Origin: Actinomycetes bacterium
GTDB taxonomy: Bacteria > Actinomycetota > Thermoleophilia > UBA2241
DNA length: 60,413 nt
Reading direction: 5' to 3'
Assembly (NCBI GenBank): GCA_029547745.1
Contig: JAKPOQ010000023.1
Span: 1-60,413 of the forward strand
The notes under the pieces were generated by a model. That model worked only from the letters and a program-made list of their open reading frames with translations, did no database searches and had not been told where the DNA came from. Positions 58,014-60,413 of this stretch are shown in pieces; within the stretch, counting starts at the first letter, position 1, and each line of letters starts with the position of its first letter. The position numbers and the translations under genes are program-made.

Positions 58014-58259
58014 CTACCGCCGCCCTCTCGCCTGCGCCTCGTCCGCGTGGCCGGCGACGTCGTCCGGCGGCTCGAGCCCGTCTTCCTGCCCCGCTCCCGC
58101 CAGGAGGTCGAAGGTACGGCGGCCGATCACGACCACGCTCTCGTTCACGTCGCTGTTGAGCAGCGCCGCGAGACGCGGGTTCGCGACCTTCAGCTTCATG
58201 CCGAAGAAGTCGATCTCGTTCTGGCCGGAGCCGCTCGCCTGATCGTCTGCACTGCTCAT
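58014..58259 (-). CDS. Small hypothetical protein (81 aa)
   Basis: MSSADDQASGSGQNEIDFFGMKLKVANPRLAALLNSDVNESVVVIGRRTFDLLAG...; no family recognised. Confidence 0.55.
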   Translation of the reverse strand: MSSADDQASGSGQNEIDFFGMKLKVANPRLAALLNSDVNESVVVIGRRTFDLLAGAGQEDGLEPPDDVAGHADEAQARGRR

Positions 58260-58303
58260 CGCTTCGCCTATCGGCCGTTCTGGCTGATCTCTTAGCCAGG
58301 CAG

Positions 58304-58366
58304 GCGGATGTACCAGCCCGCCGAGCGCATGTACGAGTCCGGCGAGCGGATGTACCAGCCCGGCGA
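58304..58366 (+). repeat. 21-bp tandem repeat, 3 copies, immediately upstream of a -35
   Basis: GCGGATGTACCAGCCCGCCGA / GCGCATGTACGAGTCCGGCGA / GCGGATGTACCAGCCCGGCGA. Confidence 0.92.
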
Positions 58367-58395
58367 TTGCCGTCCTCACCGTGCTGCGCTAGGAT
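58367..58395 (+). promoter_or_regulatory. Candidate sigma70-type promoter for the B12 riboswitch transcript
   Basis: TTGCCG (58367-58372), 17-bp spacer, TAGGAT (58390-58395). Confidence 0.5.
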
Positions 58396-58423
58396 CACGA
58401 CCGCCAATCATCATCGATGGCGC

Positions 58424-58591
58424 GCGGCTAGTGCCCTCGAGGGAAGCCGGTGTGAATCCGGCGCGGTCCCGCCGCTGTGACCGGTCGCCGCCTCTGCGTT
58501 CTCCTGTAGGAGAGTCACTGGACCTGACGGTCCGGGAAGGCAGCGGAGGCGTGTGTGGTACGACCGGGAGCCAGAAAACCTGCTGAGCCGC
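58424..58591 (+). ncRNA. Cobalamin (AdoCbl-type) riboswitch aptamer
   Basis: GAGGGAAGCCGGTGTGAATCCGGCGCGGTCCCGCCGCTGTGACCGG and GGGAGCCAGAAAACCTGC match the conserved B12-element boxes. P1 = GCGGCT/AGCCGC. Confidence 0.93.
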
Positions 58592-58640
58592 CTGCGAAGC
58601 TGTTTCCCACGCGGATGGGTGCTCGCACGAGCGGACGATC

Positions 58641-58674
58641 ACCCCGTTGTGAGAACAGCGGGGTTTGCTTCGTT
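58641..58674 (+). terminator. Candidate intrinsic terminator in the riboswitch expression platform
   Basis: ACCCCGTTGT-GAGA-ACAGCGGGGT followed by TTGCTTCGTT (weak T-tract). Confidence 0.5.
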
Positions 58675-58730
58675 AAGCAGCAACAGCTTCGCACGGATGG
58701 GCGAGCGCCCGGCGCCGGAAAGGAGTCCCC

Positions 58731-59861
58731 ATGCTGCGACGCTCTACCCTCCTCTCGCGAATCACACTCGCCACACTCACTGCACTGGCCCTCTTCGCGC
58801 TGGCGGCCCCGGCGGCGTTCGCCGTGTCGACCGCGGTGCGTGTGGAAGGGTCGCCCTACGAGGTCGCGCCGGAGACCACCGTGAGCGTCCCCGACTCCGG
58901 GACGGTAGTCGACACCGACGGCACGTCGTTCAGCTACCGAACGGGGGCGAACGCGCTCGCCGCTCTGGACCGCGCCGCAGCGTTGCGCGGATTCATCTAC
59001 AGCTTCAACACCTTGTACGGCGCCCCGTTCCTCGAGATGGTCGCCGGGCTCAGCGCCGACCCGTCCGACTGGTCAAACGGCTGGACATACATGGTGAACG
59101 GGGTCGGGTACCCGATCCTCGACATGGGCGCGGCGGACTGCATCCTGCGTACGGGCGACCGCGTCGTGTTCACCCAGAACCCCGACGCGACGTTCTCGCG
59201 TGGCGCGAAGCTCCTGCGGCTTCGCCTTGCTCCCAGGCCCGGGGTCGAGCCCGGCGACACGATCCGCATCACTGTGGTCGGCGACGACGTCGCCAAGGCG
59301 AACAGCGCCGCCGAGGCGGAGCGCTGGGGTCTCGACCCGGTCGCCGATCCCAGCTTGGTCGAACCCCCTGCGGGGTTCGCCGCCGTGCCCGGCGCTACCC
59401 TCCACGTAGGCAGCCGCGTGTATGTCGACGGCGCCGGCGACGCGGCCGACGGCACAGTCGCGATCTCCGACCTGCCCAGAGGCACCTACGGCGTCTGGGC
59501 CGAGGTGGCGATGGACGATTCGTTCAGCTACGTGCGCTCCGCCGTGACGCGGATCGATGTGAACGACGGCGCCAGGATCTCCGGGCTGCGCGTGAGCCCG
59601 TCGCCCTACCGCGCCGGTCGCCGTATGGCGATCCGCTTCCGTCTCGACAAGCGGGCCACCGTCAGCGCCCGGATCGTGAACAACAAGGGGCGCGTCGTGG
59701 CCAAGCTGGGGGCCCGCACGCTGAATGCCGGTTCGCGCATCCTCTACTGGGGAGGCAGGGCCCAGACCGCGCTGACCTCCCACCTGACGGTGAAGGTGCA
59801 GAGCGTCGACAGTTGGAGCCGCAGCGTCACTGCTACGACGAGCGTGAGAGTGGTGCGCTGA
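58731..59861 (+). CDS. Exported DUF4430 (transcobalamin C-terminal-like) protein
   Basis: Signal peptide; TGANALAALDRAAALRGFIYSFNTLYGAPFLEMVAGL...NGWTYMVNGVGYPILDMGAADCILRTGDRVVF. SD AAAGGAG. C-terminal Ig/FlgD-like segment. Confidence 0.85.
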   Translation: MLRRSTLLSRITLATLTALALFALAAPAAFAVSTAVRVEGSPYEVAPETTVSVPDSGTVVDTDGTSFSYRTGANALAALDRAAALRGFIYSFNTLYGAPFLEMVAGLSADPSDWSNGWTYMVNGVGYPILDMGAADCILRTGDRVVFTQNPDATFSRGAKLLRLRLAPRPGVEPGDTIRITVVGDDVAKANSAAEAERWGLDPVADPSLVEPPAGFAAVPGATLHVGSRVYVDGAGDAADGTVAISDLPRGTYGVWAEVAMDDSFSYVRSAVTRIDVNDGARISGLRVSPSPYRAGRRMAIRFRLDKRATVSARIVNNKGRVVAKLGARTLNAGSRILYWGGRAQTALTSHLTVKVQSVDSWSRSVTATTSVRVVR

Positions 59862-59862
59862 C

Positions 59863-60413
59863 GTGAGCACGGCACGCTCGCCGGTGCCGCGGCCCTTCGG
59901 TCGCGGTCTGCTCAGGGTCGGCGCCCTGGCGGCGTTGCTCGCCGCGCTGCTCGTCATGGCCGCCTGCGGCGGCGGTGGCGAGCGCGGCACGGCGGCGAGC
60001 GACGGACGGACCCCGGAGGACGGCGAGATCCGTCTTGTCGTGTCGCGCGACTTCGGCGCCGAGGTGCTGCGCGACGTCGTCGTGCCGGCCGAGGCGCCGA
60101 CCGACGTCCTGCGCGTGCTTGCCGAGAACGCGGAGCTCGACACCGGCTATGGCGGGCAGTTCGTCAACGGCATCGACGGGCTGAAGTCCACGTTCGGCGG
60201 CGGCAGCGCCGACGCCGCTGACTGGTTCTACTGGGTGGACGGCGTCCTCGGCGACGTCGGCGCCGCCGACTGGAAGCTCAAGGGCGGCGAGACCGTCTGG
60301 TGGGACTACCACCGCTGGGCCGACGCCATGATGCTCCCGCTCGCCCTCCATGCGTTCCCGCGCCCGTACACAGGGCGGCCACTCGCGGTGACGGCCGCGG
60401 CCGACGTCGCCGG
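59863..60413 (+). CDS. DUF4430-containing lipoprotein (3' truncated by window edge)
   Basis: Lipobox LLVMAACGGG; DWFYWVDGVLGDVGAADWKLKGGETVWWDYHRW. Confidence 0.85.
   Translation, partial: MSTARSPVPRPFGRGLLRVGALAALLAALLVMAACGGGGERGTAASDGRTPEDGEIRLVVSRDFGAEVLRDVVVPAEAPTDVLRVLAENAELDTGYGGQFVNGIDGLKSTFGGGSADAADWFYWVDGVLGDVGAADWKLKGGETVWWDYHRWADAMMLPLALHAFPRPYTGRPLAVTAAADVA

What the first reader, a model, noticed from the sequence alone, without database searches (positions are those of the whole stretch)
58367..60413. B12-riboswitch-controlled tandem transcobalamin-like (DUF4430) proteins: candidate extracellular cobalamin-capture system
Seen: a clear cobalamin aptamer, then a signal-peptide DUF4430 protein and a DUF4430 lipoprotein. 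They are 1 nt apart and continue off the window edge. Established: DUF4430 resembles the C-terminal domain of animal transcobalamin/intrinsic factor, and B12 riboswitches usually control B12 uptake or synthesis genes. Inference: a Gram-positive-type surface B12 scavenging route, with a secreted catcher and a membrane-tethered receptor feeding a transporter beyond 60413.
Basis: partly seen in the sequence, partly recalled or inferred. Interest (0 to 1): 0.8.

Follow-up and report, generated by a model that had tools for sequence, protein, structure and literature searches.

The report
Bacterial transcobalamin-like vitamin B12 uptake operon
The end of this DNA piece is the start of a vitamin-B12-controlled operon that makes surface proteins built like one half of the human B12 carriers and, on a second piece of the same genome, a B12-type membrane importer; a 2007 paper predicted such systems in outline, and the importer identity, the split design and the attached ExbB-type genes are the parts added here.

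Summary
A cobalamin riboswitch (58412-58602, 82.8 bits) precedes a secreted DUF4430 protein and, 1 nt later, a DUF4430 lipoprotein cut by the contig end.

The missing downstream genes were found on another contig of the same genome (C145, after a gap of about 2.5 kb): fused EcfA ATPase, an S-component, an alpha/alpha-toroid protein, and an ExbB-like plus DUF2149 pair. EcfT lies in the gap and is seen in the same-genus relative. The S-component matches one structure among all PDB sequences: CbrT, the experimentally proven B12 S-component (profile E 1.9e-25). An AlphaFold model of the window's lipoprotein retrieves, as its top 19 PDB matches, only animal B12 carriers and one bacterial DUF4430 structure. 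Operon and riboswitch recur across Thermoleophilia and Clostridia. In relatives the toroid is fused to the S-component or to DUF4430, the latter giving the transcobalamin architecture.

It is not wholly new: Burroughs et al. 2007 predicted B12 scavenging by such proteins with CbiO/CbiQ. Added here: the CbrT link, the S-toroid fusion, consistent riboswitch control, and a variant carrying ExbB-DUF2149, whose role is unexplained.

The parts
58412..58602 (+). Cobalamin riboswitch aptamer (RF00174)
   Evidence: cmscan 82.8 bits, gathering 31.5; homologous riboswitch upstream of the operon in the same-genus, same-family and same-class relatives
58603..58730 (+). Leader between aptamer and ORF1; conserved in the family, no intrinsic terminator found; AAGGAG at 58720-58725 is the likely ribosome-binding site
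   Evidence: mode of control (translation rather than transcription) is inference
58731..59861 (+). ORF1: secreted DUF4430 (transcobalamin beta-domain-like) protein, 376 aa, signal peptide about residues 1-31
   Evidence: Pfam DUF4430 29.2 bits; profile of 15 homologues finds transcobalamin-2 beta domain 5no0 as best PDB match, E 0.019, not significant alone
58953..59174 (+). DUF4430 domain of ORF1
   Evidence: residues 75-148
59863..60413 (+). ORF2: DUF4430 lipoprotein, N-terminal 183 aa, cut by the contig end (full length 330 aa in the same-genus relative)
   Evidence: Pfam 47.4 bits; invariant lipobox Cys; AlphaFold model mean pLDDT 84.9 whose top 19 PDB matches are transcobalamin, intrinsic factor, haptocorrin and 3u7z
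60106..60312 (+). DUF4430 domain of ORF2
   Evidence: residues 82-150

Best explanation
The locus is the 5' part of a cobalamin-riboswitch-controlled corrinoid uptake operon: riboswitch, secreted DUF4430 protein, DUF4430 lipoprotein, EcfT, fused EcfA-EcfA', CbrT-type S-component, membrane-anchored alpha/alpha toroid, ExbB-like protein, DUF2149 protein. Mechanism proposed: when intracellular cobalamin is low the riboswitch lets the operon be expressed; the DUF4430 (beta-type) proteins and the toroid (alpha-type) protein, made as separate chains, close on a corrinoid outside the membrane much as the beta and alpha halves of animal transcobalamin do, and pass it to the CbrT-like S-component, which the EcfT/EcfA module turns over with ATP. 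Shown by sequence or model: gene order, riboswitch, fold of the lipoprotein, homology of the S-component to CbrT, fusions of the toroid to the S-component or to DUF4430 in relatives. Inferred: corrinoid binding, alpha/beta assembly, direction of hand-off, and what ExbB-DUF2149 does.
For: Riboswitch. Rest of operon on C145 of the same genome; its 78% DNA identity to the same-genus operon places it about 2.5 kb beyond the window end. S-component: only CbrT (6fnp_A) among PDB sequences, E 1.9e-25 by profile and 3.2e-14 for the genome's own sequence; CbrT binds and transports cobalamin and cobinamide (PMC5997447). Lipoprotein fold: top 19 PDB matches all B12 carriers or 3u7z, next match E 0.068. 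Toroid-DUF4430 fusions in Clostridia, one of which, modelled, retrieves transcobalamin, haptocorrin and intrinsic factor as its top 14. S-toroid fusions in Solirubrobacterales. 44 of 46 relatives with at least 6 kb of upstream sequence have a same-strand cobalamin riboswitch upstream; 51 of 59 with enough downstream sequence have EcfT, EcfA and S. The genome lacks CbiC but has 13 B12-binding domains. 16 of 18 related genomes with neither corrin-ring synthesis nor a FecCD permease have the system, against 11 of 42 others, Fisher p 9e-6. Separately expressed human transcobalamin alpha and beta domains assemble in a cobalamin-dependent way (PMC5599065).
Against: No binding or transport data. The genome also has a BtuF-BtuC-BtuD-like set next to cobalamin salvage genes, so this is not its only candidate route. 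In eight family members the lipoprotein was not found although DUF2149 persists; in the five of these whose neighbourhoods were opened a toroid-ExbB-DUF2149 trio stands without ECF genes beside it, so the trio has some function of its own. The relative placement of toroid and DUF4430 is not resolved in the model (linker pLDDT about 25-35). The p-value ignores shared ancestry.
Confidence: 0.85

Rival explanations
1. The operon imports cobalt, as CbiMNQO does under B12-riboswitch control, and the DUF4430 proteins bind metal.
For: EcfT is CbiQ-like by Pfam and NCBIfam but far below the CbiQ equivalog cutoff (43 against 111.8 bits); cobalt ECF transporters are often B12-riboswitch controlled (general knowledge; one case in PMC11477304); 3u7z is titled 'putative metal binding protein'.
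Against: The S-component is CbrT-like and no CbiM was found among the operon proteins; the genome lacks CbiC, so cobalt could not feed corrin-ring synthesis.
Confidence: 0.04
2. The operon takes up a B12 precursor or other corrinoid (cobinamide, cobyric acid, pseudocobalamin) rather than, or as well as, cobalamin itself. This is a variant of the main explanation, not an alternative to it.
For: The genome keeps CobU, CobT, CobS, CbiP and other late-step genes under a second riboswitch, so it can rebuild cobalamin from incomplete corrinoids; CbrT also binds cobinamide (PMC5997447).
Against: Nothing here tests specificity.
Confidence: 0.35
3. The ECF module imports another tetrapyrrole such as heme; S-components can be heme specific (LhaS, PMC7299338).
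For: A heme-specific ECF transporter exists; ExbB-DUF2149 pairs also sit in the hmu heme operons of Bacteroidetes.
Against: Cobalamin riboswitch on this operon and on 44 of 46 relatives with enough upstream sequence; nearest solved S-component is CbrT; DUF4430 fold is that of B12 carriers.
Confidence: 0.03
4. The toroid-ExbB-DUF2149 genes are an independent module that only happens to follow the transporter genes, and the DUF4430 proteins work with the ECF transporter without them.
For: The trio stays at the same site without ECF genes in five family genomes examined, and there is no riboswitch call at those sites; ExbB-DUF2149 hits lie beside CobN or FmdE genes elsewhere.
Against: The toroid is fused to the S-component in sister families and adjoins it in Clostridia.
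Confidence: 0.3

Closest known systems
SLBB (transcobalamin-like clade) surface proteins predicted to scavenge B12 with CbiO/CbiQ (Burroughs et al. 2007, PMC1796856)
   Same: Secreted and anchored DUF4430/SLBB paralogues in one operon, alpha/alpha toroid, CbiO-like ATPase, CbiQ-like permease; hosts usually lacking B12 synthesis
   Different: The passages read name no S-component, no riboswitch, no S-toroid fusion and no ExbB-DUF2149; here toroid and DUF4430 are separate chains
ECF-CbrT of Lactobacillus delbrueckii (PMC5997447, PDB 6FNP)
   Same: Homologous S-component (E 3.2e-14); EcfT and two ATPase domains
   Different: CbrT shares its ECF module with FolT2 and no extracytoplasmic binder was mentioned in the passages read; here a module is encoded with the S-component and with DUF4430 and toroid proteins, and the two ATPase domains are fused
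Animal transcobalamin, intrinsic factor, haptocorrin
   Same: Beta-domain fold of the lipoprotein; toroid plus DUF4430 in one chain in clostridial relatives
   Different: Proteins of the window have single beta-type domains; the alpha-type toroid is a separate, membrane-anchored chain; no receptor endocytosis
BtuFCD
   Same: ATP-driven corrinoid import; a BtuF/BtuC-like set is also present in this genome
   Different: Separate binding protein and FecCD permease, different families from the S-component and DUF4430
Hmu heme uptake of Bacteroidetes (ExbB-like, DUF2149, CobN)
   Same: ExbB-like and DUF2149 gene pair beside a tetrapyrrole system (PMC10434189)
   Different: There with an outer-membrane TonB-dependent receptor; no such receptor was seen in this operon

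Membership tests
Cobalamin riboswitch (RF00174) | Score above curated gathering threshold over the full model | tested here: met
   82.8 bits against 31.5, positions 1-189
Cobalamin riboswitch (RF00174) | Ligand binding and repression by cobalamin | not testable with these tools
   needs in-line probing or a reporter assay
DUF4430 / transcobalamin-like beta domain | Pfam PF14478 above cutoff | tested here: met
   29.2 and 47.4 bits against 23.8
DUF4430 / transcobalamin-like beta domain | Fold of transcobalamin beta domain | tested here: met
   for ORF2: Foldseek top 19; ORF1 not modelled
Transcobalamin-type two-domain B12 carrier | Alpha/alpha toroid and beta domain in one chain | tested here: not met
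   separate chains in this genome; met in clostridial relatives
Transcobalamin-type two-domain B12 carrier | High-affinity B12 binding between the two domains | not testable with these tools
   domain placement unresolved in the model
ECF transporter (dedicated module) | S-component, EcfT and two ATPase domains encoded together | tested here: met
   same-genus operon; in G000 the S gene and C-terminal part of EcfA are seen, EcfT lies in the assembly gap
CbrT-type B12 S-component | Sequence homology to CbrT above other S-components | tested here: met
   6fnp_A only, E 1.9e-25 and 3.2e-14
CbrT-type B12 S-component | Cobalamin binding and transport | not testable with these tools
   needs expression and ITC or growth complementation
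ExbB-ExbD-type proton-driven motor | ExbB-family protein | tested here: met
   PF01618, 31.1 bits against 22.9
ExbB-ExbD-type proton-driven motor | ExbD-like partner with a transmembrane Asp | tested here: inconclusive
   DUF2149 FDV motif aligns with the ExbD transmembrane Asp, hhalign pairwise P 0.001 but probability 21%

The most novel reading that the evidence does not exclude
A B12 trap at the surface of a presumably single-membrane bacterium in which the two halves of a transcobalamin are separate proteins that close only around a corrinoid, and an ExbB-DUF2149 proton-driven motor acts on the toroid to release the corrinoid to a CbrT-type ECF importer: a TonB-like energised uptake system without an outer-membrane receptor.
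Probability: 0.15. Interest if true: 0.85.

Novelty: new variant of a known kind. Interest (0 to 1): 0.52.

Why it matters
It joins three things that the literature read here treats apart: bacterial DUF4430/toroid surface proteins, the CbrT class of B12 ECF importers, and cobalamin riboswitches. That makes the 2007 proposal (that animals acquired transcobalamin-like proteins from Gram-positive bacteria) and the function of an unnamed domain family (DUF4430) directly testable with defined proteins. It also supplies a candidate B12 route for corrin-ring auxotrophs that show no FecCD permease.

Tried and rejected
Exact-pattern scan of genome contigs with riboswitch DNA: no match. EcfT search in the own genome found only a weak, separate CbiQ-like gene on C116, because EcfT lies in the assembly gap; DUF2149 led to C145 instead. 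No sequence overlap joins C160 and C145, so their adjacency rests on synteny with the same-genus genome. Single-sequence PDB searches with ORF1 and ORF2 gave no relevant match; the ORF2-family profile gave none either. Intrinsic terminator or sigma-70 promoter near the riboswitch: none found. The RNA fold of the leader is not clearly better than shuffles (17 of 200 as good). FlgD-like C-terminal domain of ORF1: E 0.053, below cutoff, rejected. Cobalt and heme import considered and rejected as main explanations. Rodionov et al. 2009 on ECF families is not held, so what it says of CbrT operons could not be checked.

Full report
Observation. The window is one whole contig (G000:C160, 60413 bases) of a 2.27 Mb assembly in 203 contigs. 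Rfam finds one RNA in the window, the cobalamin riboswitch at 58412-58602. ORF1 (58731-59861) and ORF2 (from 59863, cut at 60413) carry DUF4430 above the Pfam cutoff. ORF1 has a signal peptide and ORF2 a lipobox (both by eye), whose cysteine is invariant in 20 homologues.

What lies beyond the edge. In the same-genus genome the order is riboswitch, DUF4430 secreted, DUF4430 lipoprotein, EcfT (PF02361), double ATPase (TIGR04520), S-component (PF07155/PF12822 class), toroid (squalene-cyclase-like PF13243/PF00432; weak match to NCBIfam SCO2321_fam), MotA/ExbB (PF01618), DUF2149 (PF09919). In the window's own genome a 5186-base contig, C145, carries the end of EcfA, S, toroid, ExbB and DUF2149 in that order. 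Aligned to the same-genus operon, the window stops near L033:12150 and C145 begins at L033:9612, leaving about 2.5 kb for the rest of the lipoprotein, EcfT and the first part of EcfA. The two contigs do not overlap, so adjacency is inferred from synteny.

Substrate. The S-component family profile has one significant match among all PDB sequences, 6fnp_A, E 1.9e-25; the genome's own sequence alone gives E 3.2e-14. 6FNP is the crystal structure of ECF-CbrT, whose S-component binds cobalamin at nanomolar Kd and also cobinamide (PMC5997447). The PDB file calls chain A only 'Membrane protein'; that it is CbrT follows from its homology to our S-components and its length of 182 residues. No other S-component of known structure is matched at E below 1.

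Fold of the window's protein. AlphaFold2 of ORF2 (183 residues, 65-sequence alignment, mean pLDDT 84.9) compared with the PDB gives 19 leading matches that are all transcobalamin, intrinsic factor or haptocorrin, apart from 3u7z (a Ruminococcus protein titled 'putative metal binding protein'); the next match is at E 0.068. ORF1 was not modelled; its family profile ranks transcobalamin-2 first but only at E 0.019.

Relatives. A genome scan found 363 relatives, of which 80 loci were kept, mostly Thermoleophilia and other Actinomycetota, and Clostridia and other Bacillota. With local profile HMMs, 51 of 59 loci with at least 5.6 kb downstream have EcfT, EcfA and S, and 49 the toroid. A riboswitch model built from the window's own class finds cobalamin riboswitches on the same strand upstream in 44 of 46 loci that have at least 6 kb upstream; 71 of the 76 counted hits are same-strand and upstream of the lipoprotein gene. 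In Solirubrobacterales-type loci S and toroid are one protein. 27 proteins, nearly all from Clostridia and other Bacillota, combine toroid and DUF4430, some with S-layer anchoring domains. One such protein (522 aa) was modelled: each domain is confident, the linker is not, and its top 14 PDB matches are transcobalamin, haptocorrin and intrinsic factor, ahead of terpene cyclases and prenyltransferases.

Physiology of the genome. CbiC is absent, 13 B12-binding domains are present, and a second cobalamin riboswitch (C56:2243-2412) heads CobU, CobT, CobS and further late-step genes including CbiP, followed by BtuF-like, BtuC-like and ATPase genes. So the genome looks like a corrin-ring auxotroph with salvage ability and two candidate uptake systems. 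Across 60 related genomes, all with B12-binding domains, the system is present in 16 of 18 that have neither CbiC nor a strong FecCD match and in 11 of 42 others (Fisher p 9e-6; relatedness of genomes is not corrected for, and one marker per pathway was used).

ExbB-DUF2149. This pair follows the toroid in the window's family and in genomes of a sister family. DUF2149 occurs in 3 of 101 genomes drawn from the phylum, the window's own included. In eight family genomes without a lipoprotein match DUF2149 is still present; in the five whose neighbourhoods were opened (G003, G007, G008, G009, G011) a toroid-ExbB-DUF2149 trio sits next to a ParA/ParB pair or a ParB-like gene on one side and the same kind of glycosyltransferase that flanks the window's operon on the other. 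Elsewhere in the phylum the ExbB gene at the DUF2149 hit neighbours a CobN or an FmdE protein, and in Bacteroidetes the pair belongs to hmu heme operons (PMC10434189). DUF2149 resembles ExbD at its transmembrane aspartate, but the statistics are weak. A proton-driven step is possible and not shown.

Mechanism. Steps shown by sequence or model: riboswitch, export signals, beta-domain fold, CbrT-type importer, gene order. Steps inferred: repression by cobalamin (probably at translation, since no terminator was found), corrinoid binding, closure of separate beta-type and alpha-type chains around the ligand, and hand-off to S. The closure has a precedent: separately expressed human transcobalamin alpha and beta domains assemble in a cobalamin-dependent way (PMC5599065).

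Known or new. Burroughs et al. 2007 (PMC1796856) described bacterial transcobalamin-like domains, their toroid fusions, paralogous pairs in operons, association with CbiO and CbiQ genes, and the usual lack of B12 synthesis in their hosts, and proposed scavenging of B12 or its precursors. The finding is therefore a member of a kind already predicted. In the papers searched I found no description of the CbrT link, the S-toroid fusion, the general riboswitch control, or the variant with ExbB-DUF2149; most subscription papers, including Rodionov et al. 2009, could not be read, so absence there is not shown.

Noticed in passing
G000:C56:2243-14000 (L144): A second cobalamin riboswitch heads a CobU-CobT-CobS-...-CbiP salvage operon, followed by a Fur-like regulator (by eye) and BtuF/BtuC-like genes, in the same genome.
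   Followed up: partly
L153, L154, L155, L156, L158 (family members): Toroid-ExbB-DUF2149 trio kept at the same chromosomal site although the riboswitch, DUF4430 and ECF genes are absent there; its function without them is unexplained.
   Followed up: partly
window 58014-58379 (-): Small conserved gene divergent from the riboswitch (core like 'DFFGxKLKVxxPRLAxLLNS'), present at this site in several family members, no Pfam match.
   Followed up: no
window 58300-58380: Short imperfect tandem repeats of about 24 bases (ATGTACCAGCCCGCCGAGCG...) just upstream of the riboswitch, at the start of the small divergent gene; seen by eye.
   Followed up: no
L062, L076, L112, L118, L126, L132: Two cobalamin riboswitches in tandem ahead of the operon in several Clostridia and other Bacillota.
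   Followed up: no
L125, L131: Records titled Bifidobacterium breve carry a Solirubrobacterales-like GC-rich version of the operon; the records are probably mislabelled or contaminated.
   Followed up: no
L166 (G127:C4), L167 (G101:C150): ExbB-like gene at the DUF2149 hit near a CobN protein of 1810 aa (L166) or an FmdE-domain protein (L167), suggesting the pair serves several extracytoplasmic partners.
   Followed up: partly
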